Assembly (NCBI GenBank): GCA_913019975.1
Contig: CAJWBH010000002.1
Location: 124,001-188,000 of the forward strand
Reading direction: 5' to 3'
DNA length: 64,000 nt
Source of the DNA: Thalassolituus maritimus
GTDB taxonomy: Bacteria > Pseudomonadota > Gammaproteobacteria > Pseudomonadales > Oceanobacteraceae
Shown in pieces: positions 27,275-44,823 of this stretch. A program made the translations under genes and the position numbers. The stretch's first letter is position 1. Each line of letters starts with the position of its first letter. The notes below the pieces were generated by a model. That model was not told the DNA's origin, ran no database searches, and worked only from the letters and a program-made list of their open reading frames with translations.

Positions 27275-28030
27275 TCACGCCACGGCTTCGCCGTGGGCCT
27301 GAACCTGGTTGCGGGCAGCGAACGCCGCCACTTCGCCAACGATGATCAGCGCAGGGCCTGCACCGGAATATCGCTCAGCTAAAAAAGGCAGATCCATCAG
27401 TACACCCGTATGTACTTCCTGATCTGGTAATGTCCCGTTAGCAATCAGAGCGACAGGTGTAGAATCTGACAGCCCCTCACTTAACAGGCTCGCTGTGATC
27501 ATCCCTGCCTGTTTAACGCCCATATAAAATACTCGGGTAGGGCTTTGGCTTTTCTGATACTCACCGAATTGACTGTGACCGCTATCCAGCATCAAAGCAT
27601 TTCCGTATTGGCGATGAGTCAGTGGTATTTTGGCGGCGGCAGCGCAGCCGCCAGCGGCGGTAATTCCGGGAACAATATCAACTTCGATACCGTGCTTCTG
27701 GAGATATTCCAGCTCTTCACCTCCCCGACCAAAAATAAACGGATCACCGCCTTTAAGGCGAACTACGCGGGCGTATTTACGAGCGCTGGTGAGCAGAAGT
27801 TTCTGAATGTCGACTTGAGTCATCTTGTGCGCACCGCAGCGCTTTCCGACATGAATCCGTGTGCACTTCTTCGGCAGCATATCGAGAATTTCATCAGAAA
27901 TCAGACTGTCATATAGCACAATGTCTGCCTGACTGATCACTCTCATTGCCTTTATCGTCAGCAGCTCAGGATCACCGGGACCACCGCCTACGAGCCAGAC
28001 TTTACCGGGTTGCTTCTGTGTATTTTTCAT
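27275..28030 (-). CDS. cobA: Uroporphyrinogen-III C-methyltransferase
   Basis: The 251-residue SAM-dependent enzyme has the CobA/SUMT signature KVWLVGGGPGDPELLTIKA and the second block RLKGGDPFIFGRGGEE. It converts uroporphyrinogen III to precorrin-2, the first step to sirohaem. This is a stand-alone SUMT without the CysG oxidase/ferrochelatase half. ATG 28030 has GGAG 7 bp upstream and lies 4 bp after nasA, so the two are co-transcribed. The context is clear: NirB needs sirohaem. Confidence 0.94.
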   Translation of the reverse strand: MKNTQKQPGKVWLVGGGPGDPELLTIKAMRVISQADIVLYDSLISDEILDMLPKKCTRIHVGKRCGAHKMTQVDIQKLLLTSARKYARVVRLKGGDPFIFGRGGEELEYLQKHGIEVDIVPGITAAGGCAAAAKIPLTHRQYGNALMLDSGHSQFGEYQKSQSPTRVFYMGVKQAGMITASLLSEGLSDSTPVALIANGTLPDQEVHTGVLMDLPFLAERYSGAGPALIIVGEVAAFAARNQVQAHGEAVA

Positions 28031-28034
28031 TGTC

Positions 28035-30698
28035 TTACTCCACAGCCTCTGCGGGCTGGTATTTCGCAATAAGAGATTTCAGCTCTGGTATACAAGAGCC
28101 GCAGTTCGTGCCGCATTTGAGCTGACCGCCCAGTTCATCTGCACTGGTACAGCCATCGGCAATCGCTTTGTTGATCGTATTTTCACCGACCTGAAAACAG
28201 GAGCAGATAATGGCTCCTTTATCTTCCACTTTGCCAAGAGGGCGGCCAGCAAGGATGGCTCGGCGGTCTTGCATTGACAGCTCTTTCTGACCAAACGTGT
28301 CGATCAACCACTGTCGACTGCTGAAGTCATAATCCTGATGTATAAAGAGAACCGCTTTGAGTTGGTTACCCTCAACCAGGCACAGGCGATAATGCAGGTT
28401 CGCGGGGTCACTGAACATCACCCAGTTATCGGACTCAAACTGGTTTCTGACTGAGCTGATGAATTCAACCGGATCGTTTTGCCCACTAATTTCGTACATG
28501 TGGCCAGTATCTGTAACGTTGTAAACCCAGTAATCGGTATCAAGGCTGCCCAGGTCTTTATTCGTCAGTAGAAAGCCTTCCCACTCGGTTGGAAATATAG
28601 TCGCTTCAACATCAGTGATCTTAAGGGCAGGCTGACCAGAAATTGGATCATGATCTTTGTTGATCAGAGTACCCATGCGGGCTTTGCTGGCGTAGCGACT
28701 GGTCCAGTGCATGGGAACAAAAACTTCGCCCTTACGCTGCGCCATATCACTGCGGACATGAGCGCGTACGATAATCTCTCCGAGGTTACTCCAGAGTCTG
28801 ACCAGCTTGTTGTCCCTGATGCCGAGACGCATCGCATCTTCAGGGTGAAAGTCCGCATAAGGTTCAGCAATGTGTCGGGCCAGAACAGGCGCTTTCGCGG
28901 TTCTGGTCATGGTATGCCAGTGGTCACGTACTCGCCCCGTATTCATGCTCAGACCTGTTTCTGATGCCGCGGGCGGCACTGCAATGACAGGAATGAATTT
29001 CGCTTTTCCTGATTCAGTATAGAAATATCCATCGTCGTAAAAACGTGCACGGCCAGAAGGGTAGTTATCATTAACCGGCCATTGAATCGGAGCGAGTGCA
29101 TCGTATTGTTCGCGGCTTAAATTGGTCAGGCCGCTGAGATCAAAGTCCCGCGTGCCTTTGTTCTCAAACATGGAAAGCCGCGCGTGCTCGTCAAAAATAT
29201 CGGCCGGATGCTCGTACGGAAATTCTTTCTCGAAACCCAGTCGACGCGCAACCTGAGTAATTATCCACCAGTCAGGGCGTGCTTCGCCTGGAGCAGGGAG
29301 GAAGCCTCTCTGACGCGATATACGGCGCTCAGAGTTTGTGACAGTACCGTTCTTTTCACCCCAGCTGGCAGCGGGCAGCAGTACATGAGCAGCCGCGGTT
29401 GTATCGGTGTTTGCCATGCAATCTGAGACGACAACCAGCTCACAGTGTTTCATGGCTTCTTTAACATCATCAGCATCAGGCATACTGACCAGCGGGTTGG
29501 TGGACATAATCCACAGGAACTTTATTTTGCCGCTTTTGACTTCGTTGAACAGATCGACCGCTTTTAAGCCCGGCTTTTCTGCAATACGAGGTGACTGCCA
29601 GAAACGACGTACGCGGTCTCTATCGGCGGGGGAGAAGTCCATATGCGCAGCCAGCTGGTTGGCCAGACCTCCGACTTCCCGCCCACCCATTGCATTCGGC
29701 TGCCCTGTAATTGAGAACGGGCAGGCACCCGGCTTACCAATACGACCGGTGGCGAGGTGAAGGTTGATAATGCTGTTTGCTTTATCAGTTCCATCGACGC
29801 TCTGGTTCACCCCTTGAGAATAAAAGGTCACCGTTTTCGGCGTATCGCGAAACCAGGCGAAGAAGGTTTCCAGGTCCTGCTGGCTGACATCAGTAATATC
29901 AGCGAGTGAAGAAAAATCAGCGGCTGCTTGTGATGCGGCATCAAGTGCTGCGCTGATGTTTTCAGAACACTGCTCAATAAAGTGTGTGTCCAGTGCGTTC
30001 TGTTGGTGTAAGTAGGTCAGCAGCGCATTAAATAGCGAAGTATCGGAACCCGGCTTTATTGGCAGATGCAGGTCTGCAATGTCACAGGTTGCTGTTTTAC
30101 GAGGGTCGATCACAACAACCTTCATATCCGGGCGAGCTTTCTTTGCCGCAGCCATACGTTGGAACAGAATAGGGTGGGCCCAGGCGGCATTGCTTCCGGT
30201 GATCACCAGAAGGTCAGCCTGTTCCAGGTCTTCGTAGCAGCCCGGTACGGTATCACTGCCAATAGACCGTTTGTAAGAAGCAACAGCCGACGCCATACAC
30301 AGACGCGAATTGGTATCCATATTCGCACTGCCTATAAAGCCCTTCATCAACTTGTTGGCGACGTAATAATCTTCTGTGAGAAGCTGGCCTGACCCGTAGA
30401 ACGCAACCGCTTCCGGGCCATGGGTAGAGACTACCTGGCGGATCTTATCGGCGACCAGGTTCAGTGCGGTATCCCAATCAGCTGCCTGGCCATTCATTGT
30501 CGGGTGTAGCAAACGGTCGGTTTGATCCAGAGTATCGTGCAGCGCAGATCCCTTAACGCATAGACGCCCGAAATTTGCTGGGTGCGACTTCATTCCAGCG
30601 ACAGGCGCAATATCCTTCTCGTCGACAGAAATATCCACACCACATCCTACTCCGCAGTATGGACATGTTGTCTGAACCTGTAGCTTTTTATGACTCAT
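28035..30698 (-). CDS. nasA: Assimilatory nitrate reductase, molybdenum catalytic subunit
   Basis: The 887-residue enzyme has the N-terminal 4Fe-4S site Cys12, Cys15, Cys19 and Cys47 (CPYCGVGC...RLCVKG), the bis-MGD molybdopterin oxidoreductase core, a molydopterin dinucleotide-binding domain, and a C-terminal BFD-like 2Fe-2S domain (CSCFQVG...CGTNCGSC). No signal peptide, as expected for the cytoplasmic Nas enzyme. It reduces nitrate to nitrite. A GTG at 30710 is in frame, but ATG 30698 is preferred. Expression appears to be controlled by a leader terminator (see 30747-30827). The likely electron donor is the NasB-like flavoprotein at 38.0-39.3 kb. Confidence 0.96.
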   Translation of the reverse strand: MSHKKLQVQTTCPYCGVGCGVDISVDEKDIAPVAGMKSHPANFGRLCVKGSALHDTLDQTDRLLHPTMNGQAADWDTALNLVADKIRQVVSTHGPEAVAFYGSGQLLTEDYYVANKLMKGFIGSANMDTNSRLCMASAVASYKRSIGSDTVPGCYEDLEQADLLVITGSNAAWAHPILFQRMAAAKKARPDMKVVVIDPRKTATCDIADLHLPIKPGSDTSLFNALLTYLHQQNALDTHFIEQCSENISAALDAASQAAADFSSLADITDVSQQDLETFFAWFRDTPKTVTFYSQGVNQSVDGTDKANSIINLHLATGRIGKPGACPFSITGQPNAMGGREVGGLANQLAAHMDFSPADRDRVRRFWQSPRIAEKPGLKAVDLFNEVKSGKIKFLWIMSTNPLVSMPDADDVKEAMKHCELVVVSDCMANTDTTAAAHVLLPAASWGEKNGTVTNSERRISRQRGFLPAPGEARPDWWIITQVARRLGFEKEFPYEHPADIFDEHARLSMFENKGTRDFDLSGLTNLSREQYDALAPIQWPVNDNYPSGRARFYDDGYFYTESGKAKFIPVIAVPPAASETGLSMNTGRVRDHWHTMTRTAKAPVLARHIAEPYADFHPEDAMRLGIRDNKLVRLWSNLGEIIVRAHVRSDMAQRKGEVFVPMHWTSRYASKARMGTLINKDHDPISGQPALKITDVEATIFPTEWEGFLLTNKDLGSLDTDYWVYNVTDTGHMYEISGQNDPVEFISSVRNQFESDNWVMFSDPANLHYRLCLVEGNQLKAVLFIHQDYDFSSRQWLIDTFGQKELSMQDRRAILAGRPLGKVEDKGAIICSCFQVGENTINKAIADGCTSADELGGQLKCGTNCGSCIPELKSLIAKYQPAEAVE

Positions 30699-30746
30699 AG
30701 GGCTATCCACATAGTTGGCTTGCTACTCTCAAGCCTTTTCGTGAGC

Positions 30747-30779
30747 AAAAAAAAACGCCCGCGGAGTTACCCGCGAGCG
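30747..30779 (-). terminator. Leader terminator (attenuator) of nasA
   Basis: On the minus strand the GC-rich hairpin formed by 30779-30756 is followed by nine Ts (30755-30747), 48 bp before the nasA start codon. A terminator lying inside a leader implies antitermination. Confidence 0.85.
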
Positions 30780-30827
30780 CCAATGCTCATAAACACAACA
30801 CAAAACGACGACACCAACGTTGGTGTC
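30775..30827 (-). promoter_or_regulatory. ANTAR-type two-hairpin antiterminator in the nasA leader
   Basis: In the minus-strand RNA, hairpin P1 (30827-30810) has stem GACACC/GGTGTC and hexaloop AACGUU; hairpin P2 (30788-30775) has stem GAGC/GCUC and hexaloop AUUGGC. Both loops have A at position 1 and G at position 4, the known ANTAR-protein recognition rule, and P2 shares its 3' arm with the 5' arm of the terminator, so the two are mutually exclusive. This matches NasR/NasT targets. The ANTAR protein is not encoded here. Confidence 0.8.
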
Positions 30828-30879
30828 TGGACCGCTGAATCTGGCTCCCTGCCAATGCACAAGGTCTTAGTAATGAGTA

Positions 30880-30896
30880 AACAAAAAGAGTGCCAA
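30880..30896 (-). promoter_or_regulatory. Sigma-54-like promoter of nasA
   Basis: Minus strand TTGGCAC-TCTTT-TTGTT. The -24 element is perfect; the -12 has TTGT instead of TTGC. The predicted start is near 30869, giving a 171-nt leader with P1 about 40 nt downstream. Confidence 0.6.
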
Positions 30897-31108: not shown

Positions 31109-31201
31109 CTCTGTGGTTCTGATACTCCCAGCCCACCGACAGGCAGGCTGAAAACCAGACGCGACGGCCTGCCATTGCATCTGGCGGTTCTGGATACCGC
31201 T

Positions 31202-31218
31202 TTGGCACTCATATTGCT
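31202..31218 (+). promoter_or_regulatory. Sigma-54 promoter of nirB
   Basis: TTGGCAC-TCATA-TTGCT has the invariant GG and GC exactly 10 bp apart and matches the sigma-54 consensus closely. The predicted start is about 31229, 98 bp before the nirB ATG. This indicates RpoN- and NtrC-dependent transcription. Confidence 0.85.
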
Positions 31219-31299
31219 AAAGCCTATTCGATACTGTTTGCTGCAACGGCGTAGCGGGTAAGTAGAGCAACGATGCACTTATTTAAGGAGACAAGAAGA

Positions 31300-31311
31300 A
31301 TGTCTGAATAA
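31300..31311 (+). CDS. Possible three-codon leader ORF (MSE-stop) before nirB
   Basis: A strong AAGGAG (31285-31290) stands 9 bp before ATG TCT GAA TAA, ending 15 bp before the nirB start. It may be a minimal ORF loading ribosomes for nirB, or the AAGGAG may be accidental. Confidence 0.3.
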   Translation: MSE

Positions 31312-31326
31312 GAGAGAGTCATCGCC

Positions 31327-33891
31327 ATGAGTAAGAAGCGCATCATAGTTGTTGGTAACGGTATGGTTGGCCACAACTTCCTCGCCACTATGGCCGAATC
31401 TGAGAAAGCCTCAGAATTCGAATTAATCACCTTTTCCGAAGAACCTCGCCTTGCGTACGACCGCGTACAGCTGAGCAAATACTTTTCAGGGGCGACCGCC
31501 GCTGACCTGGCACTCACCACAGAATCTGAATACGACGATTCCGGTATTACCTATTTAAAGAATGAGAAAGTTGTCGAAATTGACGCCGACAACAAAACCA
31601 TTACGACCTCAACCGGGCGTATAGAAGGATACGACAAACTGGTGCTGGCAACGGGTTCCTATCCATTTGTTCCACCGATTCCGGGTAAGGATCAGGATCA
31701 CTGCCTTGTTTATCGTACGATTGAAGATCTTGAAGCAATTTCTGCGTCCGCTGAAGTATCCAAAACGGGTGTTGTTGTTGGTGGCGGTCTGCTTGGCCTT
31801 GAGGCAGCAAATGCACTTAAAGAAGCCGGCCTTGATACCCACGTTGTTGAATTTGCTCCGCGCTTAATGGCCGTGCAGCTCGATGAAGGCGGCGGTAATC
31901 TGCTGCGACATAAAATCGAATCTCTGGGTGTGTCAGTACACACTGAAAAAAACACCAAAGAAATTGTCGCCGGCGAAGAATGCCGCTATCGCATGAACTT
32001 TGCCGACGGCTCACACCTTGAAACAGATATGATTCTGTTCTCTGCAGGTATTCGCCCTCAGGATGAACTTGCGCGACAGTTCGGCATCGACGTCGGCGAA
32101 CGCGGCGGTATTGTCATTAACGATTATTGTCAGACCTCAGAAGAAGACATCTATGCAATTGGCGAATGTGCGCTCTGGGACAGTAAAATTTTCGGTCTGG
32201 TCGCACCGGGCTACCAGATGGCAAAAGTCACAGCGGCTCACATCACAGACACCCTGGTAAATCTGAAAACCCCGGAACTTGCTTTTAAGGGTGCTGATAT
32301 GAGCACCAAGCTTAAGCTGCTGGGCGTGGATGTCGCATCGATAGGTGATGCGCATGGCCATACGGCGGGTTCTCAGTCGTTTGTATTCAGTGACGACATC
32401 GAAGAAGTCTACAAGCGACTTATTGTTTCTGCCGACGGTAAAAAACTGCTTGGCGCCGTGCTGGTGGGTGAAACTGAATCCTACGGTACTTTGCTGCAAC
32501 TCATGCTTAACGATATGGATATCCCGGGTAATCCAGCTGCACTTATTCTGCCAGCACTGGGTGACGAAGCGCCTGCAGGCCTGGGGGTAACTGCATTACC
32601 CGACACGGCTCAGATCTGTTCATGCTACGACGTATCAAAGGGTGACATTGCTGCTGCGGTACAAGGTGGCTGCTGCACCATGGGAGACATTAAAGGTGCG
32701 ACCAAAGCGACCTCGGGTTGCGGTGGTTGTGCTGCCCTGACCAAGCAGGTAATGGATGCCGAGCTGGAAGCTCTGGGTGTAGAGGTCAATAATGATCTGT
32801 GCGAACACTTTGCCTACACCCGTGCTGAGCTGGCAGACATTATTCGAGTGAAAGGCTACGCCAGCTTTAAGGATGTATTGCAGGGGCACGGCAAAGGACA
32901 CGGTTGTGAGATCTGTAAGCCGACCATTGGTTCTATTCTGGCTTCGTACAAGAACGAGTATGTTCTGAAAGATGATCTGATGCCGCTGCAGGACACCAAC
33001 GATATTTTCCTCGGCAATATGCAAAAAGACGGTACTTACTCTGTCGTACCGCGCGTACCGGGGGGTGAGATTACCCCTGATAAACTGATTGCCATTGGTG
33101 AGATCGCTAAAGAGTTTGATCTCTATACCAAAATTACTGGTGGGCAGCGTATCGATTTATTTGGTGCACAACTCCACGAGTTGCCGAAAATCTGGGAGAA
33201 GCTGATTGCCGCTGGCCTTGAAACCGGGCATGCCTACGGTAAAGCACTTCGTACCGTGAAATCCTGTGTAGGAAGCACCTGGTGCCGTTACGGTGTGCTC
33301 GATTCTGTCTCCATGGCTGTCGCTCTTGAGCATCGCTACAAAGGACTGCGCGCACCACACAAAATTAAGTTCGGTGTTTCTGGTTGTACACGCGAGTGTG
33401 CCGAAGCCCAATCAAAAGACATTGGTGTCATTGCGACTGAAAGCGGTTGGAATCTGTATGTCTGCGGTAATGGTGGTATGCGACCTCGTCATGCTGATCT
33501 GTTTGCGACAGATCTGGACGATGAAACCCTGATCAAATATATCGACCGCGTATTGATGTTCTATGTACGTACAGCAGATCGCCTGCAGCGTACATCTGTA
33601 TGGCTGGAAAACCTTGAAGGTGGTCTCGACTATCTGCGTGAAGTCGTTATCGATGACAAGCTGGATATCTGTGGTGAGCTTGAAAATGACATGACTCGTG
33701 TTGTGGGTACTTACCAGTGTGAGTGGAAAACTACGGTTGAATCCCCAGAGAAGCTCAAGCGCTTCAGTCACTTTATTAATGCTGCTGAAGAAGACAACAA
33801 CCTTCTCTATGTGCGTGAACGCGGACAGCGGCGCCCGGCGACTGATAACGAGCGTATCGAACTGGTTGAGTTAACGGCAGAGAAGCACTGA
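31327..33891 (+). CDS. nirB: NAD(P)H nitrite reductase, large subunit
   Basis: The 854-residue enzyme has an FAD/NAD(P)H oxidoreductase domain (GNGMVGHNF at about 10, second Rossmann GGGLLGLEAANAL), a BFD-like 2Fe-2S region starting at Cys431 and Cys433 (CSC), a ferredoxin-like nitrite/sulphite reductase repeat, and the sirohaem/4Fe-4S Cys at 647, 653 (CVGSTWC), 687 and 691 (CTREC). It reduces nitrite to ammonium in the cytoplasm with NirD. It is the first gene of nirB-nirD-narK-kinase-VOC and has a clear sigma-54 promoter with NtrC-like sites. Confidence 0.97.
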   Translation: MSKKRIIVVGNGMVGHNFLATMAESEKASEFELITFSEEPRLAYDRVQLSKYFSGATAADLALTTESEYDDSGITYLKNEKVVEIDADNKTITTSTGRIEGYDKLVLATGSYPFVPPIPGKDQDHCLVYRTIEDLEAISASAEVSKTGVVVGGGLLGLEAANALKEAGLDTHVVEFAPRLMAVQLDEGGGNLLRHKIESLGVSVHTEKNTKEIVAGEECRYRMNFADGSHLETDMILFSAGIRPQDELARQFGIDVGERGGIVINDYCQTSEEDIYAIGECALWDSKIFGLVAPGYQMAKVTAAHITDTLVNLKTPELAFKGADMSTKLKLLGVDVASIGDAHGHTAGSQSFVFSDDIEEVYKRLIVSADGKKLLGAVLVGETESYGTLLQLMLNDMDIPGNPAALILPALGDEAPAGLGVTALPDTAQICSCYDVSKGDIAAAVQGGCCTMGDIKGATKATSGCGGCAALTKQVMDAELEALGVEVNNDLCEHFAYTRAELADIIRVKGYASFKDVLQGHGKGHGCEICKPTIGSILASYKNEYVLKDDLMPLQDTNDIFLGNMQKDGTYSVVPRVPGGEITPDKLIAIGEIAKEFDLYTKITGGQRIDLFGAQLHELPKIWEKLIAAGLETGHAYGKALRTVKSCVGSTWCRYGVLDSVSMAVALEHRYKGLRAPHKIKFGVSGCTRECAEAQSKDIGVIATESGWNLYVCGNGGMRPRHADLFATDLDDETLIKYIDRVLMFYVRTADRLQRTSVWLENLEGGLDYLREVVIDDKLDICGELENDMTRVVGTYQCEWKTTVESPEKLKRFSHFINAAEEDNNLLYVRERGQRRPATDNERIELVELTAEKH

Positions 33892-35858: not shown

Positions 35859-37619
35859 ATGACGCCGCCAGGCAACGAACGTAACCTCGAAGTGACATTT
35901 GGAGGTTTTAGCTCTGCTGGGAACAAACCAGAAAATCAGGATGCTTTCGCAGCCTGGCAGCCGTCGACAAACAGTGCCCGTTATAAAGGAATTGCCTGTT
36001 GTATTGCAGACGGCGTGAGTTGTAGCGATAACGCCCAACAGGCAAGCACCACCAGTGTTACTCATTTTCTAAATGATTATTACAGCACGCCGGATAGTTG
36101 GGATGTAAAAACGGCAGCCGGAAAAGTGCTGAGCTCCCTCAATGCCTGGCTGTATCATCATGGACAGCAAGCGAGTGCGCGGCATAACTCTCTGGTAACA
36201 ACTCTTAGCTCGGTCGTGCTTAAATCGAGCACTCTTCATGTCTTTCATGTGGGCGACTCGCGTGTATACCGCTTAAGAAACGGTTCTCTGGAATGCCTGA
36301 CCCGCGATCATACTCATCAACATGGGAATGGTCAGGATTACCTCAGTCGCGCTATGGGCATGGACACTCACCTCGAGGTTGACTACCTGAACCAGCCGCT
36401 GGAAAGCGACGATGTTCTCCTTATGACGACAGATGGAGTTCACGGTTTTCTTACAGATAAGCGGATGCGCGACACTCTGATCAAGGAACTGACATCGCAG
36501 AGCACACAAATTCATTTCGAGAAATGTGCTCAATCTCTGGTTGATCAGGCGTTGAATAATGGCAGTAACGATAACCTGACCGCCATGATTATCCGGGTCG
36601 AAAGTCTGCCTGAAAAGAATATTGAGGAAACTCATCGGGTATTAACTGAGCGCGTTATTCCCCCCGTGTTGAATACCGGAGATTGTATTGATCATTACGA
36701 GGTTGAGCAGGTTGTCTATGCAGGAACCCGCAGTCATTTATACCGTGTACTGAACAGACGTAATCAGAAACGTTATGTGCTCAAGGCACCCTCGCTGAAC
36801 TTTGAGGAAGACCTGGTCTATCTAGAGGGGTTTGTGCGTGAACAGTGGGTGGGGGCACGTGTTGATCATGCGAATGTTATGAAGATTCTACCGCCCGAAC
36901 CACACGCTCGTTTTATGTATCATATCTGTGAGCTGATTGAAGGAGAGTCCCTGCGTCAGTGGATGAACGATCACCCACAACCGGAGTTAAGCAGTGTACG
37001 AAACATTATTGAGCAGATAGTGATGGCCCTGCGGGCGTTTCAACGCATGGGCATGGTACATCGCGATCTGAAACCCGAGAACGTCATGATCACCGCTCAG
37101 GGGCAGGTGAAACTGATTGATTTTGGTACGGTGCAAGTGAAGGGCCTGGCAGAAGTTACCAGTCCTGTGGAAGAAGACTGCCCGGTTGGCTCAGTAAATT
37201 ATATTGCTCCTGAGTACGTTATGTACGGTACGGCGACAACTCAGAGTGATCTGTTCTCACTAGGAGTGATGGTGTATGAGATGCTTTGTGGAGAACAGCC
37301 TTTTCGTATGTCTCATATCCACAGAACGGGAGCACGATCTGTTTCCGAGTGGAAGTATCAACCGCTGCGGGAAGTACGCTCTGATATTCCTTTATGGCTG
37401 GATCTGGCTATCGAAAAATCTTGCCACCCTGATATTCGCGCCAGACATTCCGCACTGTCCGAATTCTGGACTGATCTGATAAAGCCGAATGAAGCTCTGG
37501 TGAGTACGTATTCTGGCAAGCCTCTGATCGAACGTCACGCGGATAAAGTATGGCCAGCAGTATCGGCCATACTTATGCTGGTGGTTATACTTCAGTCCTG
37601 GTTGCTATTGTCAGAGTAA
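35859..37619 (+). CDS. PP2C phosphatase / Ser-Thr protein kinase fusion with C-terminal membrane anchor
   Basis: The 586-residue protein joins two opposing activities. Residues 1-250 are a PP2C phosphatase with metal-binding Asp28 (ENQDAF), Asp51 (ADGVS), GDSRVYRLR and GSNDNLT. Residues 275-550 are a Hanks-type kinase with catalytic Asp403 in HRDLKPENVM, IDFGTVQ and APEYVMYG; the Gly-rich loop (YAGTRSHLYRV) is degenerate but the Lys in YVLKAPS is present. A terminal helix (about 563-584) anchors it in the membrane. Comparable fusions occur in nitrate-assimilation clusters of Pseudomonas. The substrate is unknown; control of nitrate transport or reduction is a reasonable inference. Confidence 0.9.
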   Translation: MTPPGNERNLEVTFGGFSSAGNKPENQDAFAAWQPSTNSARYKGIACCIADGVSCSDNAQQASTTSVTHFLNDYYSTPDSWDVKTAAGKVLSSLNAWLYHHGQQASARHNSLVTTLSSVVLKSSTLHVFHVGDSRVYRLRNGSLECLTRDHTHQHGNGQDYLSRAMGMDTHLEVDYLNQPLESDDVLLMTTDGVHGFLTDKRMRDTLIKELTSQSTQIHFEKCAQSLVDQALNNGSNDNLTAMIIRVESLPEKNIEETHRVLTERVIPPVLNTGDCIDHYEVEQVVYAGTRSHLYRVLNRRNQKRYVLKAPSLNFEEDLVYLEGFVREQWVGARVDHANVMKILPPEPHARFMYHICELIEGESLRQWMNDHPQPELSSVRNIIEQIVMALRAFQRMGMVHRDLKPENVMITAQGQVKLIDFGTVQVKGLAEVTSPVEEDCPVGSVNYIAPEYVMYGTATTQSDLFSLGVMVYEMLCGEQPFRMSHIHRTGARSVSEWKYQPLREVRSDIPLWLDLAIEKSCHPDIRARHSALSEFWTDLIKPNEALVSTYSGKPLIERHADKVWPAVSAILMLVVILQSWLLLSE

Positions 37620-38011: not shown

Positions 38012-39259
38012 TCAGGCTGCGTCGGAACAATACGCTTGCCCGAATATGAGCATGTCGCGATAGTCACTGACGTCTGTTTTTTCTTCCATCATTTGGTAGT
38101 ACCAATGGCTGTCGGTGACATCTCCTATACATAACGCACCTATGATCCGGTTGGCCTTCAGGATCACTTTCTTGTAGACACCATATTCTCGGTCTTCCAG
38201 TACCAGGGCGTCTGCGCCTTCCGGTGTTTCGTACTCACCGATACTATGGATGTCCAGGCCCGATACTTTGAGTTTGGTCAGGTGTGATCGCTCAATGTAA
38301 CCACTGGCGTTATCTTTGGATGTTAGTTGTCTGACGATGACGTCGGCCTGATCCCAGATAGGTGCTACTAAACCGTAAGTGGTTCCTGAAAACTCACAGC
38401 ATTCTCCCAGGGCAAAGATGTCGTCAGCAGATGTCTGCATTCTTTCATCGACACAGATACCTCGATTCACGCTGAGTCCTGAGCTATCCGCAAGTTCTTT
38501 GTTAGGAAGAATACCCGTTGCAAAGATAACCAGTTGAGTATCGCGTTTTTCGAGAGTATCGGCGGTTGCAAAGGATACTTCGCGGACCCCTGAGTCGTCT
38601 GTCAGAACTTCTTCTGGATTTACTCCAGTGATCACTTCAATTCCTCGTTCCTCCAAAGCCCCTTTTAAAAGATCAGACGCTTTTGCATCAAGCTGGCGGT
38701 TCATTAAAACAGGATTGCGATGAATCAGAGTGACGTCGATTCCTCGTAGTTTCAGCCCGACGGCAGCTTCTACGCCAAGCAAGCCAGCGCCTATTACGGT
38801 TGCATGTTTAAGGCCGTTGAGCTTTTCTTCCATAGCATCAACATCACTCATTGTGCGAAAACCGATGACATCCGGGTGATCTGCACCTTTGACCGGAGGT
38901 ATAAACGAACGGCTCCCCGTGGCGAATACCAACTTTTCATATGGATAGCTACGACCGCTTTGGGTGGTAACGATTTTTTGTTCTGTATCAACCAGAGTGG
39001 CACTGTCACCCAGCTGAATCGATATACGGTAGTTGGAATACCATGCGTCATCATGGGGTGTTATGTTCGCCAGAGTCGTTTCTTTGGCGAGAAGAGGTGA
39101 GAGCATAATGCGATTGTAGTGAGGGATCTTTTCATCGCCGAGCACAAGAATCCGGTCGTATGGATGATCTTCAGCAAGCCCCTCCAGTATGCGATTAGCC
39201 GCCATACCGTTACCGATAATTACCAGTTGGTTTTCTACTTTCTTGTCTTCACTCTTCAC
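38012..39259 (-). CDS. nasB: NasB-like FAD/NAD(P)H oxidoreductase, likely electron donor to nitrate reductase
   Basis: The 415-residue flavoprotein resembles the N-terminal half of NirB: VIIGNGMAANRILE for FAD, HYNRIMLSPLLA, GAGLLGVEAAVGLKLRG for NAD(P)H, and IFALGECCE before the C-terminus. It lacks the 2Fe-2S and sirohaem domains. I choose GTG 39259, which has GGAG with proper spacing; the frame opens at 39307 without such a site. Assignment to NasB rests on domain content and its place at the end of the nrt operon; a related NAD(P)H reductase role is possible. Confidence 0.78.
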   Translation of the reverse strand: MKSEDKKVENQLVIIGNGMAANRILEGLAEDHPYDRILVLGDEKIPHYNRIMLSPLLAKETTLANITPHDDAWYSNYRISIQLGDSATLVDTEQKIVTTQSGRSYPYEKLVFATGSRSFIPPVKGADHPDVIGFRTMSDVDAMEEKLNGLKHATVIGAGLLGVEAAVGLKLRGIDVTLIHRNPVLMNRQLDAKASDLLKGALEERGIEVITGVNPEEVLTDDSGVREVSFATADTLEKRDTQLVIFATGILPNKELADSSGLSVNRGICVDERMQTSADDIFALGECCEFSGTTYGLVAPIWDQADVIVRQLTSKDNASGYIERSHLTKLKVSGLDIHSIGEYETPEGADALVLEDREYGVYKKVILKANRIIGALCIGDVTDSHWYYQMMEEKTDVSDYRDMLIFGQAYCSDAA

Positions 39260-39293
39260 TCGATTCTCCACATCTTTTATAACAGAATAAACG

Positions 39294-39316
39294 AAAACAG
39301 CGGCCATAGGCCGCTG
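39294..39316 (-). terminator. Hairpin between the porin and nasB-like genes
   Basis: CAGCGGCC-ATA-GGCCGCTG is a perfect 8-bp stem, followed on the minus strand by only four Ts. It could partly terminate after the porin gene. Confidence 0.5.
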
Positions 39317-39333
39317 AGTTTCGTTGCGGGGTA

Positions 39334-40485
39334 TCAGAACTTAGCCTGAACCCATGCCCACATTTTAGTGGTATCTACGCCGGTATCACCCGCAGAGTAA
39401 AACGCCGCTTTTGCACCTACAGTGAAGGTGTCATCGAGTTTCTTAACTGCCAGCAGGTCCAGTTCGTTACCAAAATCAACGTCATCTTCAACAGAGTTGA
39501 AAGTGTGGTAAAAACCAACCAGTTTTACGCCAGCGACTGCACCAGCGGCTTTGACATAAGTATCGCTCAGGCCGTCACCGCTGGTACTTACCGTGGTACT
39601 CAGGAACTTATCCGCCCAACCATTAAACTTGTGTTTGGTTGCCAACGGAGTTTCAAATGCTGCATTACCATCATCGCTACCCAGTGTTTCATTACCCAGT
39701 GCCAATGTTACGCCAGATACCACGGCGCCACCCTCAAGGGCAAAGTAGTTAGTGTCTGCAGTTTCCGTGCTCTGAGTAGCATACTCGGCCTTATAGATGA
39801 GTTTAGTGCCATCCATATCATAGCTACCGTTGTAGCTAAGGCCGAATGTGTCACGTTGACTATTTTCGGTATCATCGTCTTCTAGCAGGTAAGCGTACGC
39901 AGTGATTTTACCGGTACCTACTTTATAACCAGCGTTTAGTAAATGGCTTGTCGTATCGGCGTCAAACCTCGGCAAGATACCATTGACCTGATCAATGAAA
40001 GAGTAGTGCAAAGAAAGCTCATCTTTAGAATAGGTCAGCGTAACAGCATCAAACGTTTGCTCGTTTGCGCGCCAGCCTACGTTACCAACAAAACGTGCGC
40101 CGTCGAGAATAATACGCTGGCGGCCGACGATTGCACCGAATTCGTCTTTTTTGTAGCTGACCTGGGCCCGGTTCCATTCGCGGGTTTCAGGATCTGCAAT
40201 AGCATCATAGCCTGCCTTTTCGGGAGCGTAATCGTCAATCAGAGGCTGAACAATTTCGTATTCTACAAGAGCCGAGAACCCTTCGTAATTGAGCGTTTCA
40301 AAGCCGACTGCAGCGTCAGTAATCAGGCCTGTCGCGGCGTCATTATCAGTCGCATCGTCAGTATCATTGGTCTCGTAACGCACTTTGACATCAGCGTAGG
40401 CATTGCCGTACTCAGTTTCATACGCAGATGCACCCAGTGTGGCAGTCCCCAATGCGATCGCCAGTAACGTTTTCTTAGCTTGCAT
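39334..40485 (-). CDS. Outer-membrane porin, probably for nitrate/nitrite
   Basis: The 383-residue protein has a signal peptide (KKTLLAIALGTATLGASA), many alternating amphipathic strands (TFDAVTLTYSKDELSLHYSF, LLNAGYKVGTGKITAYAYLL) and ends WAWVQAKF with C-terminal Phe, all typical of a beta-barrel porin. An AAGGAG precedes the ATG. It lies 41 bp downstream of nrtD and upstream of nasB, so it is part of the nitrate operon, and a role in bringing nitrate across the outer membrane is inferred. I recognise no specific porin class. Confidence 0.8.
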   Translation of the reverse strand: MQAKKTLLAIALGTATLGASAYETEYGNAYADVKVRYETNDTDDATDNDAATGLITDAAVGFETLNYEGFSALVEYEIVQPLIDDYAPEKAGYDAIADPETREWNRAQVSYKKDEFGAIVGRQRIILDGARFVGNVGWRANEQTFDAVTLTYSKDELSLHYSFIDQVNGILPRFDADTTSHLLNAGYKVGTGKITAYAYLLEDDDTENSQRDTFGLSYNGSYDMDGTKLIYKAEYATQSTETADTNYFALEGGAVVSGVTLALGNETLGSDDGNAAFETPLATKHKFNGWADKFLSTTVSTSGDGLSDTYVKAAGAVAGVKLVGFYHTFNSVEDDVDFGNELDLLAVKKLDDTFTVGAKAAFYSAGDTGVDTTKMWAWVQAKF

Positions 40486-40526
40486 GGCATTCTCCTTTTA
40501 ATTCGAAGCCTTTTTATCAATAGAGG

Positions 40527-41396
40527 TTAAGCAACTTCACCGGTCTTTTTGTCGACCTTTTCTTCATTACTATCGTCGGAGTCGGCAGCCTTCTTAGCGG
40601 GCGCATCTGTATCCGGCTTTCTCTGTTTTTCATACAGGAAACTCAGAACCTGCTGACGGTACTTGTTGTATTGCGGGTCGTCGGCAAGTTGAATTCGGTT
40701 ACGTGGGCGTTCAAGTTCTACGTCCATAATTTCGCCTATGGTCGCGGACGGACCATTGGTCATCATCACAATACGATCCGAAAGCAATACTGCCTCGTCG
40801 ACATCGTGGGTAATCATGATGACGGTGTTGTTCAGGTCTTTCTGAATTTCCATCAGAGAGTCCTGCAGGTGAGCGCGTGTCAGGGCATCAAGTGCGCCGA
40901 ACGGCTCGTCCATTAACAGAACCTGCGGCTCCATCGATAGTGCACGGGCAATACCAACGCGCTGTTTCATACCACCGGAGATTTCATCGGGGCGTTTGTG
41001 CATGGCGTGGCTCATGTGAACCAACTCGAGATTGTGTTCAATCCATTCGCGCATTTCTGCTTTGGATTTCTGGCCTTTAAATACGCGCTTTACTGCCAGT
41101 TCGACGTTCTGATAGGCGGTGAGCCAAGGCAGGAGAGAGTGGTTCTGGAAGACAACAGCACGCTCAGGGCCTGGTTCATTCACTTCTTTTCCGCTCAGAA
41201 CGACGCCGCCCTGAGTCGCCTGATACAGACCAGCCACGATATTCAGTACCGTAGACTTACCGCAGCCAGAGTGACCAATCAGCGAAATGAATTCGCCTTT
41301 CTTAATTTTCAGGTTCACATTCTGAAGCGCACAGAAAGGACCTTTCGGTGTTGGAAATTCGATACCAACATCTGATAGTTCGAGTAATGGGTTCAT
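40527..41396 (-). CDS. nrtD: Nitrate ABC transporter ATP-binding protein
   Basis: The 289-residue ATPase has Walker A GHSGCGKST (41-49), signature ISGGMKQRVGIARA, and Walker B VLLMDEPFGALD. Sequence around the Q loop and length are those of the NrtD/TauB/SsuB group. A hydrophilic Asp/Lys-rich tail (from about 255) extends beyond the usual end. It energises nitrate import with the neighbouring NrtA and NrtB. No NrtC (ATPase with fused solute-binding domain) is present. Confidence 0.92.
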   Translation of the reverse strand: MNPLLELSDVGIEFPTPKGPFCALQNVNLKIKKGEFISLIGHSGCGKSTVLNIVAGLYQATQGGVVLSGKEVNEPGPERAVVFQNHSLLPWLTAYQNVELAVKRVFKGQKSKAEMREWIEHNLELVHMSHAMHKRPDEISGGMKQRVGIARALSMEPQVLLMDEPFGALDALTRAHLQDSLMEIQKDLNNTVIMITHDVDEAVLLSDRIVMMTNGPSATIGEIMDVELERPRNRIQLADDPQYNKYRQQVLSFLYEKQRKPDTDAPAKKAADSDDSNEEKVDKKTGEVA

Positions 41397-41423
41397 AATG
41401 AAACTCCTCTGTCCTTTGTGTAC

Positions 41424-42428
41424 TTATCGTGTAGCTGCTGACTTATCCCACGACACTTTGCGCTGAATCATCAGCATGACGCGGTCAAGTAAGAAGCCAA
41501 TCAAACCAATGGTGATAACGGCGACCATAATCCGGCCTAAGGAGTCAGAAGAGCCGTTCTGGAATTCGTCCCAGACGAATTTTCCAAGACCTGGGTTCTG
41601 CGCAAGCATTTCCGCCGCGATCAGTACCATCCAGGCAATACCCAGAGAAAGACGCAGACCGGTAAATACCATTGGGATAGATGAAGGAAGTACGATCTTA
41701 CGAACGTGTTCCATATAGCTCAGGCGCAAGACCTGTGACACATTCACGAGATCTTTAGGAATAGATGCGACACCCACTGCGGTATTAATTACCGTTGGCC
41801 ACAGGCAGCACAGCATGACTGTGATCATGGAAGTCACGAATGATTTCGGCACCATCGGATCGTCTGATACATAGAGAGCAGATACCACCATAGTGACGAT
41901 AGGGAGCCAGGCTAAAGGTGATACTGGCTTAAAAATCTGGATAACAGGATTGAATGCGCTGTAAAGGTTAGCACTCAGTCCAATAACGATACCAAATGGG
42001 ATAGCAATCAGTGAGGCAAGAACAAAACCACTTAATACGGTTACCAGGCTGGTTCCAATCTGATCGATGTAGGTTGGCTTACCTGTGTAGTCCCGGATTT
42101 TCGGAACGTACGTTGGGTCTTGTTTAACGCGGGCAGCGTTACGTTTTTCCTGACGCTCGTAAAACGCTTCGGCTTTTTCACGTTCAGTGAAGTGTTCAGA
42201 GAGCAGACCTTTGGTCTGGGTAACAACGTCACCTGGTCCGGGGAATTGCCCCAGAGATGTATTGATATTACTGGCGGCGGCTTGCCAGATCATCAGAAAA
42301 ACCAGTAGGCCGGCCAGTGGCAGACCGATAGTTTTAATAATCGTCTGGATATTTCCAGAAACATCTTCACCTTTCGCAATGCTTACAAAGGGTGAAATCC
42401 AGGCAATGTTCGACAGCGCAGTAGTCAT
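41424..42428 (-). CDS. nrtB: Nitrate ABC transporter permease
   Basis: The 334-residue inner-membrane protein has a first helix around 30-55, a periplasmic or cytoplasmic Lys/Glu-rich insert (about 70-115) and the BPD_transp_1 domain with the EAA-like loop RIMVAVITIGLIGFLLDR near the end. AAGGAG lies 5 bp before ATG 42428, so this is preferred over 42452. It pairs with NrtD and NrtA for nitrate or nitrite import. Confidence 0.92.
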   Translation of the reverse strand: MTTALSNIAWISPFVSIAKGEDVSGNIQTIIKTIGLPLAGLLVFLMIWQAAASNINTSLGQFPGPGDVVTQTKGLLSEHFTEREKAEAFYERQEKRNAARVKQDPTYVPKIRDYTGKPTYIDQIGTSLVTVLSGFVLASLIAIPFGIVIGLSANLYSAFNPVIQIFKPVSPLAWLPIVTMVVSALYVSDDPMVPKSFVTSMITVMLCCLWPTVINTAVGVASIPKDLVNVSQVLRLSYMEHVRKIVLPSSIPMVFTGLRLSLGIAWMVLIAAEMLAQNPGLGKFVWDEFQNGSSDSLGRIMVAVITIGLIGFLLDRVMLMIQRKVSWDKSAATR

Positions 42429-42477
42429 AAAAACTCCTTCGGTCCGGACCATTGAGTCCGTTGACCCTTTTTAATGG

Positions 42478-42528: not shown

Positions 42529-43911
42529 TCAGATTTTCTCGGCGCCTTTCAGGCCGATTTCGAACTTCTTGAGGTACTCATTAGGCTTGCTACCGTCGTA
42601 TACGATATTGTCGATGAAGCCTTTCTGAGCGGGTTTGAAGCCGGTTTCTGTTGCGAAATCCGGGAAGTCTTTCGCATCAAGCTTGCCTTCTTTGATCAGC
42701 TCTTTGGCTGCAGAAGCGTAGATGTCTGGGCGATAAACTTTCTTCGCTGTTTCCATGAACCAGTCATCTGATTTTTCTTCAGAAATCTGCCCCCAGCGAC
42801 GCATTTGAGTGAGGTACCAGATGGCATCCGAGTAGTATGGGTAGGTTGCGTTGTAACGGAAGAACACGTTGAAGTCTGGCACTTCGCGCTTATCGCCTTT
42901 CTCGTATTCGAAGGTGCCTGTCATTGAGTTAGCAATAACGTCATAGTCAGCGCCTACGTACTGAGACTTAGACAGAATTTTTACTGCTTCAGGACGGTTC
43001 GCGTTGTTGTCAGCATCCAGCCAGGCTGCTGCACGAATCATCGCCTTAACCACTTTCTTATGAGTGATTGGGTATTTGTCTGCCCATTCTTTGCTCACAC
43101 CAAATACTTTTTCTGGATTGTTTTTCCAGATTTCGTAGTCGGTAATAACGGGTACACCAATACCTTTAAATACGGCTTGCTGGTTCCATGGTTCACCCAC
43201 GCAGTAACCGTAAATGGTGCCGGCTTCCATCGTTGCAGGCATTTGCGGTGGTGGAGTTACAGAAAGCAGCGCATCAGCATCAATCTGACCCGAGGTATCA
43301 CCTTTATGCGGTGCGTAGTAACCCGGGTGAATACCGCCCGCAGCCAACCAGTAACGCAGTTCATAGTTGTGTGTTGAAACCGGGAATACCATGCCCATGT
43401 TGAATGGCTTACCGTCGGCTTTATATTTCTCAACGACTGGCTTAAGTGCATCTGCTTTAATCGGGTGAACTGGCTTGCCATCTTCGTGCGGGATGTGCTC
43501 TTTCATCTGGCTCCAGATATCGTTTGATACCGTGATGCCATTGCCGTTGAGGTCCATGCTGAACGCAGTGATGATGTGTGCCTGCGTACCGAAGCCAATG
43601 GTTGCGCCCAGGGGCTGACCAGCAAGCATGTGGGCACCGTCGAGCTGACCATCGATTACGCGGTCGAGCAGGACTTTCCAGTTAGCCTGTGCTTCGAGGG
43701 TGACGTACAGACCTTCTTCTTCGAAGTAGCCTTTTTCATAGGCTACAGCCAGAGGAGCCATGTCGGTCAGCTTGATAAAACCGAACTTCAGTTCTTCTTT
43801 TTCTGCCCATTCCTCAGCGGATACCAGAGGCGCTGACATGGTTGCCATGCCTGCGGCCAATACCAGTGCGCTTTTCACAAACGTGCGGCGCAGAGTTTTG
43901 ATTCCTCGCAT
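42529..43911 (-). CDS. nrtA: Nitrate ABC transporter substrate-binding protein, Tat-exported
   Basis: The 460-residue product matches NrtA/CmpA-type binding proteins: [26 protein letters not shown] and [20 protein letters not shown] are characteristic. The N-terminus [14 protein letters not shown] is a twin-arginine signal. It binds nitrate or nitrite in the periplasm. It is the first gene of nrtA-nrtB-nrtD-porin-nasB. Its 125-nt leader contains a strong attenuator and an ANTAR-like antiterminator. Confidence 0.94.
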
Positions 43912-43934
43912 TTCCTTCCCCTTTTTAAAGCAAC

Positions 43935-43983
43935 AAAAAAAGGCGCTACGACAGCACTGCTATTAGCAGGAGTCGAAAGCGCC
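43935..43983 (-). terminator. Leader terminator (attenuator) of nrtA
   Basis: On the minus strand a long, interrupted hairpin (GGCGCT 43983-43978 with AGCGCC 43947-43942; inner CGAC/GTCG and CTGCT/AGCAG) precedes seven Ts, 24 bp before the nrtA start codon. Confidence 0.85.
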
Positions 43984-44034
43984 TTTGCTTTGTAAATCTT
44001 GATTTGAAAATTGCGAACTTCGCCATTGAAGTTC
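43976..44034 (-). promoter_or_regulatory. ANTAR-type two-hairpin antiterminator in the nrtA leader
   Basis: P1 (44034-44015) has stem GAACTTC/GAAGTTC and hexaloop AAUGGC. P2 (43991-43976) has stem AAAGC/GCUUU and hexaloop AAAGGC. Both loops have A1 and G4. P2 contains the GGCGCU that forms the 5' arm of the terminator, so P2 and the terminator exclude each other. The same design is seen before nasA with different stems, which argues against chance. Confidence 0.82.
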
Positions 44035-44046
44035 TGAAATGCTTAA

Positions 44047-44063
44047 TACAAGCACCGTGCCAA
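44047..44063 (-). promoter_or_regulatory. Sigma-54-like promoter of nrtA
   Basis: Minus strand TTGGCAC-GGTGC-TTGTA: perfect -24, and a -12 with T in place of C. The predicted start (about 44036) puts P1 at the very beginning of the transcript. Confidence 0.68.
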
Positions 44064-44192
44064 TTAATTTATTAAATTGAAATAATTCCAGAGAAGCCTT
44101 GTTTCATGCAGGTTTCAGAGAGGTAAGGATTATATGGTTGTCAGTTTTAAATATGAGGTTGAGAATTATTATTAGATATCTGCGATTACCTT

Positions 44193-44209
44193 CGGCTTGT
44201 TTTGGTGCG
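44193..44209. promoter_or_regulatory. NtrC-like half-site region upstream of nrtA (proximal)
   Basis: A TTTTGGTGCG half site within a 17-mer matching NtrC at about 11 positions, about 165 bp from the predicted start. Confidence 0.42.
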
Positions 44210-44223
44210 GAGCGCTGATGTTT

Positions 44224-44240
44224 GGTGATACTCTGGTGCA
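44224..44240. promoter_or_regulatory. NtrC-like half-site region upstream of nrtA (distal)
   Basis: CTGGTGCA half site in a 17-mer matching at about 11 positions. Its centre is 31 bp from the proximal copy, the same distance as the pair before nirB. The remaining sequence at 44064-44286 holds nothing else I recognise. Confidence 0.42.
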
Positions 44241-44286
44241 GCTCGTATCGTAATCACTATAACCATTTGTGAAATAAGGAATTTTT

Positions 44287-44823
44287 ATGCTCAACCGCAA
44301 GCGCACCGGCCTGATCATTGTGGATGTTCAGGGTAAGTTAGCCCGATTGATGCACGATTCCGAGGCAATGCACGCCTCTCTGAGAACACTGATTTCCGGC
44401 ATAAAGGCGATTGACCTGCCGATTATCTGGCTTGAGCAGAACCCGGAAAAGCTGGGCGAGACATCATCTGAGTTAACGGAGCTTCTTTCTGGAGAACCCA
44501 TCTCCAAGTACACCTTCAGTGCCTGTGGTGAACCGCGTTTCGTCGATGCTATTGAAGCGAGTGATGTCCATACCTGGCTGGTCGCGGGCATCGAATCGCA
44601 TATTTGCGTGTATCAGACCGTACGGGATCTGATTGAGCTTGGGCGTAAAGTTGAGGTCGTTACTGACTGCGTTTCCTCGCGAACACCCGCAAACCGTCAG
44701 CTGGGAATTGATCGTATGCTGGATGCCGGTGCTCGCCCAACCAGCGTCGAAATGTGCCTGTTCGAGCTGGTGGGCAGTTGCAAGGTACCGGAGTTTAAAG
44801 CCGTATTGGATCAGATTAAGTAA
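44287..44823 (+). CDS. Isochorismatase-family cysteine hydrolase
   Basis: The 178-residue protein has the family triad Asp13 (IVDVQ), Lys74 (SKYTFSAC) and Cys107 ([11 protein letters not shown]), plus the typical cis-peptide segment before the nucleophile. It resembles YcaC-like hydrolases and nicotinamidase relatives; substrate unknown. AAGGAA precedes ATG. It is divergent from nrtA; whether it shares nitrogen control with that operon cannot be said. Confidence 0.88.

What the first reader, a model, noticed from the sequence alone, without database searches (positions are those of the whole stretch)
43935..44034. Second ANTAR-type leader upstream of nrtA
The nrtA leader has its own two hexaloop hairpins (AAUGGC, AAAGGC) with wholly different stems, and the second overlaps the terminator stem. 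Conservation of loop rule and topology without stem identity in two leaders of one island strongly suggests selection. It places transporter and reductase under the same nitrate-sensing switch.
Basis: partly seen in the sequence, partly recalled or inferred. Interest (0 to 1): 0.75.

Follow-up and report, generated by a model that had tools for sequence, protein, structure and literature searches.

The report
Nitrate-sensing RNA switch before nrtA
The nitrate-transporter operon of this marine bacterium starts with a conserved two-hairpin RNA switch, matched by one before the nitrate reductase gene, and the only protein of the right kind found in the genome is a nitrate-sensor type encoded far away, so this is a new example of a known kind of switch with an unusual, terminator-less cousin nearby.

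Summary
On the minus strand, nrtA is preceded by P1 (44034-44015, loop AAUGGC), P2 (43991-43976, loop AAAGGC) and a terminator whose 5' arm is P2's loop and 3' strand. A covariance model trained only outside the window's genus finds this leader (42.1 bits) and the nasA leader (35.6 bits), and nothing else in the own genome at E<=1. P1 stems covary strongly. Model R2 finds the element in 27 of 42 nrtA leaders from genomes with an ANTAR protein and 0 of 10 without.

One correction: the genome search gives no NasT or NasS. The single ANTAR protein found is an unlinked NIT-ANTAR (NasR-type) protein about 132 kb away. Relatives carry NasR-type, NasT-type or both with similar leaders.

Verdict: new member of a known kind, the NasR/nasF-type ANTAR antiterminator.

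The bolder lead is the nirB leader: a covarying hexaloop hairpin, a 2-bp second one, no terminator found in the window, and a Shine-Dalgarno plus three-codon micro-ORF in 24 of 26 leaders with the hairpins (4 assigned by eye) and 0 of 24 without. It fails two membership criteria and is only a candidate.

The parts
44047..44062 (-). sigma-54-like -24/-12 promoter TGGCACGGTGCTTGTA (11 of 12 consensus positions; consensus recalled); P1 starts 15 nt after the -12 G, i.e. close to the predicted transcript start
   Evidence: 44 of 52 nrtA leaders score >=10/12 versus 22 of 1040 shuffles
44015..44034 (-). P1 hairpin GAACUUC[AAUGGC]GAAGUUC
   Evidence: 5 of 6 counted pairs change on both sides across 15 orthologues; closing C-G 15 of 15
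43976..43991 (-). P2 antiterminator hairpin AAAGC[AAAGGC]GCUUU
43935..43986 (-). intrinsic terminator whose 5' arm overlaps the P2 loop and 3' strand; U tract 43941-43935
42529..43911 (-). nrtA, ABC-type substrate-binding protein (first gene of the switched operon); the name is inferred from family and neighbours
   Evidence: NMT1_2 1.3e-98
38012..42452 (-). downstream genes in the same direction: permease, ATPase, porin-like protein (Alginate_exp match), NirB-like FAD oxidoreductase; probably one operon (inferred)
30880..30895 (-). sigma-54-like promoter of the nasA leader (10 of 12)
30810..30827 (-). P1 of the nasA leader GACACC[AACGUU]GGUGUC
30774..30789 (-). P2 of the nasA leader UGAGC[AUUGGC]GCUCG
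30754..30781 (-). terminator overlapping P2 of the nasA leader
28035..30710 (-). nasA, assimilatory nitrate reductase-like molybdoenzyme with a NirB-like BFD domain (second switched operon, with a cobA-like gene 27275-28069); NCBIfam matches are below their cut-offs, so the name is inferred
31203..31218 (+). sigma-54-like promoter of nirB (11 of 12)
31235..31260 (+). P1-like hairpin in the nirB leader, loop AACGGC, stem covaries in relatives
31267..31276 (+). 2-bp P2-like element GC[AACGAU]GC in the nirB leader; no terminator found
31285..31311 (+). Shine-Dalgarno AAGGAG and three-codon micro-ORF ATG-TCT-GAA-TAA (31300-31311) ahead of nirB (31327)

Best explanation
The nrtA leader is a NasR-type ANTAR antitermination switch. 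Transcription probably starts from a sigma-54 promoter (nitrogen-limitation input), so that P1 forms almost at the RNA 5' end. Without nitrate, P2 gives way to the stronger overlapping terminator and RNA polymerase stops before nrtA. With nitrate, the unlinked NIT-ANTAR protein binds the P1 and P2 loops, holds P2 and lets transcription through. The nasA operon carries a second copy with a different P1, so uptake and reduction respond together. Shown here: the sequence features, covariation, the genome-wide pair of hits, co-occurrence with ANTAR proteins, and the identity of the only ANTAR protein found. Inferred: transcript start, protein binding, nitrate dependence and operon extent.
For: Anatomy. 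Independent model R3 (17 leaders, none from the window's genus) hits the nrtA leader at 42.1 bits, E 7.2e-8, and the nasA leader at 35.6 bits, E 2.2e-6 (the next window matches are E 0.077 and 0.52). In the whole own genome these are the only two at E<=1 (150 of 956 first-look candidates scored). Covariation: nrtA P1, 5 of 6 pairs change on both sides, score 0.452 versus 0.159 shuffled, 0 of 500; nasA P1, 4 of 6, 0.315 versus 0.153, 0 of 500. Loop-closing C-G in 15 of 15 and 14 of 14, as in NasR SELEX (PMC7496416, passages). Overlap: model R2, which does not see terminators, marks 51 leader elements at E<=0.05; 50 of 51 have a P2-overlapping terminator by rule, versus 414 of 5000 random upstream positions (20 of the 51 are training sequences that a terminator-requiring scan had chosen, and one non-leader row, L115 4523-4561, was left out). 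Co-occurrence: R2 in nrtA leaders 27 of 42 with an ANTAR protein, 0 of 10 without; nasA 24 of 38 and 0 of 10. Genome-wide, all 46 R2 hits (E<=0.05) in the 26 window-family genomes that have an ANTAR protein and a hit lie within 400 nt upstream of nrtA (22) or nasA (24). Regulator: one ANTAR protein, NIT 2.2e-51 plus ANTAR 4.5e-20, best solved match NasR 4akk, E 1.9e-55, keeping R340, K341, K345, K347, R366, N373, with Y for W362 (residue numbers from PMC7496416 passages, mapped by me with offset 27). Energetics: terminator -25.2, P2 -3.5, P1 -8.4 kcal/mol.
Against: P2 hardly varies, so covariation does not prove it: of 5 counted pairs 2 never vary, 1 varies on one side, and the two outer ones are unpaired in 6 and 10 of 15. 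R2 finds nothing at E<=0.05 in 15 of 42 ANTAR-bearing nrtA leaders and 14 of 38 nasA leaders. Only 28 of 80 named nrtA loci pass the relaxed scan. The genomes are related, so counts are not independent; 6 of the 10 no-ANTAR nrtA genomes are one genus and three of the ten have under 800 nt of upstream DNA. By the relaxed scan 1 of 10 no-ANTAR nasA leaders scores (G037, score 30). Linkers run from 18 to 58 nt in the window family's clear nrtA hits, whereas EutV responds poorly to changed spacing (PMC3369931, passages). Predicted P2 pairing is not steady during elongation (0.29 to 0.98). The inhibitory residues E191, R193, Q194 of Klebsiella NasR are A, Q, D here, so nitrate control need not work the same way.
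Confidence: 0.88

Rival explanations
1. The leader is an ANTAR antiterminator but is worked by NasT-NasS.
For: Some relatives with such leaders have only a NasT-type protein: G007 in the same genus (both leaders) and G012 (nasA leader 34.8 bits); both also have a NasS-like protein.
Against: In the own genome the ANTAR search gives one protein, the NIT-ANTAR one, and the NMT1_2 search gives NrtA and one weak match (73 bits) of a kind also seen in relatives, no NasS-like protein.
Confidence: 0.05
2. An ordinary attenuator or partly read-through terminator with no protein partner; the hexaloops are chance.
For: The terminator is strong on its own.
Against: Loops and closing pair are fixed while stems covary; R2 finds the element in 0 of 10 nrtA leaders of genomes without an ANTAR protein; the flanking genes diverge, so no upstream gene needs a terminator here.
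Confidence: 0.04
3. The element acts mainly by another route, for example translation control or RNA stability through P1 at the 5' end.
For: P1 starts 15 nt after the -12 G, so near the predicted RNA 5' end; actinobacterial ANTAR RNAs act on translation (PMC8164766, passages).
Against: P2 overlaps a terminator in 50 of 51 model hits; the ribosome-binding site lies beyond the terminator.
Confidence: 0.05

Closest known systems
Klebsiella oxytoca nasF leader with NasR
   Same: Two hexaloop hairpins with A1 and G4, C-G closing pair, P2 overlapping the terminator, NIT-ANTAR regulator (passages of PMC3369936, PMC3369931, PMC7496416; part 1 of section 10 of PMC3369931).
   Different: Here two separate operons (nrtA and nasA) carry leaders and the regulator gene is about 132 kb away. 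The characterised NasR system is described as affecting a single locus.
NasS-NasT controlled nitrate-assimilation leaders (Paracoccus, Pseudomonas, Azotobacter, Bradyrhizobium)
   Same: ANTAR protein shown or proposed to act on leader RNAs of nitrate-metabolism genes (passages of PMC3795266 and PMC6759348).
   Different: No NasT-type or NasS-like protein found in this genome.
Enterococcus eut leaders with EutV
   Same: Same RNA architecture and several leaders under one regulator (passages of PMC3369931 and PMC3369936).
   Different: Different signal, regulator input domain and pathway.
Actinobacterial ANTAR RNAs near ribosome-binding sites
   Same: Dual hairpins close to the ribosome-binding site, mostly without terminators, like the nirB lead (passages of PMC8164766).
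   Different: The nirB element has a 2-bp P2, lies upstream of rather than over the Shine-Dalgarno, and precedes a three-codon micro-ORF; its binding is untested.

Membership tests
ANTAR-target antiterminator RNA | two hairpins with hexanucleotide loops, A at 1 and G at 4 | tested here: met
[quoted passage not shown]
   7 and 5 pairs; criterion from PMC3369931 section 10
ANTAR-target antiterminator RNA | C-G pair closing each loop (NasR SELEX) | tested here: met
   criterion
ANTAR-target antiterminator RNA | P2 overlaps an intrinsic terminator | tested here: met
ANTAR-target antiterminator RNA | P1 pairing supported by covariation | tested here: met
ANTAR-target antiterminator RNA | P2 pairing supported by covariation | tested here: inconclusive
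   nearly invariant
ANTAR-target antiterminator RNA | ANTAR protein encoded in the genome | tested here: met
ANTAR-target antiterminator RNA | bound by the ANTAR protein, signal-dependent read-through | not testable with these tools
   needs bench work
NasR (NIT-ANTAR) regulator | NIT domain plus C-terminal ANTAR domain | tested here: met
NasR (NIT-ANTAR) regulator | RNA-binding residues of the ANTAR domain kept | tested here: met
NasR (NIT-ANTAR) regulator | Klebsiella-type NIT-ANTAR inhibitory residues (E191, R193, Q194) | tested here: not met
   variable across 17 NIT-ANTAR proteins, so taken as a mechanism detail of one protein, not as defining
NasS-NasT system | NasT-type short ANTAR protein and NasS-like NrtA paralogue in the genome | tested here: not met
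[quoted passage not shown]
   P2-like element has two pairs
ANTAR-target antiterminator RNA, applied to the nirB leader | overlapping terminator | tested here: not met
   none overlapping P2 in 22 of 22 strict leaders; none in window 31150-31400; a loose rule finds a terminator-like site somewhere in 7 of 26 leaders
Rfam family | match at gathering score | tested here: not met
   0 matches; whether Rfam holds an ANTAR RNA model was not established

The most novel reading that the evidence does not exclude
The island has a third ANTAR-type leader, before nirB, that works without a terminator. A NasR or NasT dimer bound to the covarying 5' hairpin and a minimal 2-bp hexaloop sits just upstream of a strong Shine-Dalgarno that drives an exactly three-codon micro-ORF, whose translation is coupled to nirB. 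One nitrate sensor would then control two operons by antitermination and a third by translation, on RNAs that have outlasted exchange of the regulator between NasR and NasT.
Probability: 0.35. Interest if true: 0.7.

Novelty: new member of a known kind. Interest (0 to 1): 0.45.

Why it matters
It places the nitrate transporter and the nitrate reductase of a marine Oceanospirillaceae-like bacterium under one predicted RNA-level nitrate input on top of nitrogen control, and names a specific, unlinked regulator to test. The family gives a natural experiment: leaders of one design in genomes with NasR-type, NasT-type or both proteins, and not found where no ANTAR protein was found. If the nirB lead holds, one sensor would use two different RNA mechanisms in one pathway.

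Tried and rejected
Rfam at gathering threshold gave no match in the window; at E<=10 over 26-46 kb it gave nine sub-threshold matches to other families, none at these leaders except chance-level ones near the nasA leader (30744-30859).

NasT as regulator: rejected for this genome. A sigma-54 promoter upstream of nasR: none convincing, best 5 of 12 in 417 nt.

The sigma-70 consensus scan found no promoter on the nrtA strand in 43800-44400.

The strict stem descriptor missed many leaders because P2 has only three strict pairs there; a relaxed scan and covariance models replaced it. The relaxed scan hit 24 of 5000 shuffled leaders.

Model R3 on 36 nirB loci: at the nirB leader itself only weak hits (16.3 and 15.1 bits, E 0.13 and 0.25, G007 and G003), and none in the window's nirB leader up to E 10, so the nirB element is not claimed as a member.

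Left out: 3 of 51 nasA leaders (G029, G041, G059) and 8 of 58 nirB leaders were not examined.

Literature: eight of ten searches used; from titles and abstract starts I saw no paper on an nrtA leader of this group or on the nirB micro-ORF. PMC8708949 (a minigene affecting toxin translation) was seen in a listing only. Supplementary tables of PMC3369931, which list covariance hits, could not be read, so a published hit in a relative is possible; its main text already names nitrate and nitrite transporters among hits.

Full report
What is there. The leader lies on the minus strand between nrtA (start 43911) and a divergent isochorismatase-family gene (44287). Reading 5' to 3': a sigma-54-like -24/-12 element (44062-44047), P1 (44034-44015, loop AAUGGC), a 23-nt linker, P2 (43991-43976, loop AAAGGC), and a terminator (stem 43986-43939, U tract 43941-43935) whose 5' arm reuses the P2 loop and 3' strand. 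Folding of 43930-44045 has z -4.59. Because the flanking genes diverge, no upstream gene needs a terminator here.

Chance. A mechanical descriptor of the full architecture gave two hits in the window, at nrtA and nasA, and one in 80 Markov-shuffled strands of the same length. Model R3, built from 17 leaders with none from the window's genus, finds the nrtA leader at 42.1 bits and the nasA leader at 35.6 bits in the window; the next matches there are E 0.077 and 0.52. In the own genome these are the only two at E<=1; the tool scored 150 of 956 first-look candidates. Models R1 and R2 contain sequences of this genus, so their scores for this leader are not independent. E-values are rough because calibration was short.

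Conservation. nrtA was found in 52 of 74 searched genomes, nasA in 51, an ANTAR protein in 46. Fifteen distinct nrtA leaders give P1 with 5 of 6 pairs changed on both sides, 91% of cells paired, closing C-G invariant, and covariation score 0.452 against 0.159 when shuffled; slid structures score at most 0.158. Fourteen nasA leaders give 4 of 6. P2 is nearly invariant. That is expected if its 3' strand must also pair in the terminator, but it means covariation does not prove P2. The loops differ by operon: nrtA P1 is AAYGGC (one AAUGGU) and P2 AAAGGC in all 15 aligned leaders; nasA P1 is A..G.. with freer positions, and P2 is AUUGGC in 12 of 14.

Co-occurrence. All 52 nrtA leaders and 48 of 51 nasA leaders were examined. 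R2 at E<=0.05 marks the nrtA leader in 27 of 42 ANTAR-bearing genomes and 0 of 10 others, and the nasA leader in 24 of 38 and 0 of 10. Within the window's family the figures are 23 of 29 and 0 of 6, and 24 of 30 and 0 of 7. The relaxed scan (score 30 or more) marks 32 of 42 and 0 of 10 nrtA leaders, and 23 of 38 and 1 of 10 nasA leaders; the one is G037 at score 30. R1, built from nrtA leaders only, gives 32 rows at E<=0.05 over the 100 loci, none from a genome without an ANTAR protein. Genome-wide, R2 at E<=0.01 hit 30 of 74 genomes, all with an ANTAR protein; at E<=0.05 it hit 33, one of them (G021, E 0.0467) without one (76 candidates per genome scored). Of 56 R2 hits, 50 lie within 400 nt upstream of nrtA or nasA; in the window's family 46 of 47 do, the exception being that of G021. 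R3 in 17 genomes without an ANTAR protein gave nothing below E 0.045. Genomes that contributed to the models count among the positives, and relatedness makes these counts non-independent. Leaders without the attenuator still have a sigma-54-like element (9 to 11 of 12) near nrtA: in eight of the ten it lies 80 to 132 nt before the start of the protein match, six of these scoring 9, below the cut-off of 10 used for the counts. For nasA, 21 of 48 leaders reach 10 of 12, against 28 of 960 shuffles. In the named set, 28 of 80 nrtA loci pass the relaxed scan, including Methylophaga, Marinomonas and Marinobacterium loci (names), and R2 marks 13 of 80 at E<=0.05, one of them (L212) about 1 kb upstream rather than in the leader.

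Regulator. The own genome gives one ANTAR protein, 423 aa, NIT plus ANTAR, at C2:34988-36259, about 132 kb from the leader on the same contig. Its best solved match is Klebsiella NasR, 4akk. RNA-binding residues named in passages of PMC7496416 are kept, with tyrosine for W362; the inhibitory-interface residues E191, R193, Q194 are A, Q, D and vary across the 17 NIT-ANTAR proteins aligned, own one included (residue mapping mine). No NasS-like protein was found with it. By open-frame length, relatives divide into NasR-type only, NasT-type only, and both. The split was checked by domain search for the own protein only; one search shows NIT motifs in the 17 long proteins and not in the 13 short ones aligned. 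G007 of the same genus has only a NasT-type protein, with a NasS-like gene between it and nrtA, yet both leaders are found there by R3 at E 3.1e-6 and 2.4e-5. NasT-type genus g6 (G013, G018, G022, G030) has weak nrtA motifs and none in nasA.

Mechanism. Predicted energies: P1 -8.4, P2 -3.5, terminator -25.2 kcal/mol. P2 pairing is predicted at 0.97 with the RNA ending at 43976, between 0.29 and 0.98 as the terminator stem is made, and 0.00 once the end reaches 43940. So P2 is lost when the terminator's 3' arm emerges, which is where a bound protein would matter. P1 begins 15 nt after the -12 G, near the predicted transcript start; in other family leaders that distance is longer, up to 34 nt in NasR-type genomes. 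Binding, nitrate dependence and the start site are inferred from the Klebsiella system.

Outside the coordinates. The nirB leader on the plus strand has a sigma-54-like element (31203-31218), a P1-like hairpin (31235-31260, loop AACGGC), a 2-bp P2-like element (31267-31276), a Shine-Dalgarno and a three-codon ORF (31300-31311). Fifty of 58 nirB leaders were examined. The strict P1 plus P2-like core is in 22 of 26 family genomes with an ANTAR protein outside genus g6; G007, G009, G015 and G016 were counted as near misses by eye. It is in 0 of 4 g6 genomes, 0 of 11 ANTAR-bearing genomes outside the family, and 0 of 9 genomes without an ANTAR protein; shuffles 4 of 5000. P1 covaries in 6 of 7 pairs over 23 sequences, near misses included, score 0.584 against 0.267 shuffled. 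No terminator overlaps P2 in the 22 strict leaders and none is found in window 31150-31400, but a loose rule finds a terminator-like site somewhere in 7 of the 26. No mechanism is shown.

Host. NrtA is 100% identical in an Oceanospirillaceae bacterium MAG from the Red Sea, with Thalassolituus marinus at 91% and Thalassolituus sp. UBA674 at 86%, so the window is probably from a Thalassolituus-like marine gammaproteobacterium. Which named genus is the window's own was not settled.

Noticed in passing
window 31203-31327 (+): nirB leader with covarying hexaloop hairpin, 2-bp P2-like hexaloop, no terminator found, and a three-codon micro-ORF with Shine-Dalgarno (24 of 26 leaders assigned the hairpins, 0 of 24 others).
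   Followed up: partly
L001:1471-2742 (-): Own NIT-ANTAR protein has A, Q, D where Klebsiella NasR has the inhibitory residues E191, R193, Q194, and relatives vary there, so its off-state may be held differently.
   Followed up: partly
G007, G009, G024, G028, G032: NasT-type proteins occur instead of (G007) or beside (the others) NasR-type ones in close relatives with the same kind of leader.
   Followed up: partly
G072 C29:13201, C13:7416, C19:98565: One order-level relative has four R2 hits, one at nrtA and three not at nrtA or nasA.
   Followed up: no
window 35859-37619 (+): A fused PP2C phosphatase / protein kinase gene follows the NarK-type transporter downstream of nirB.
   Followed up: no
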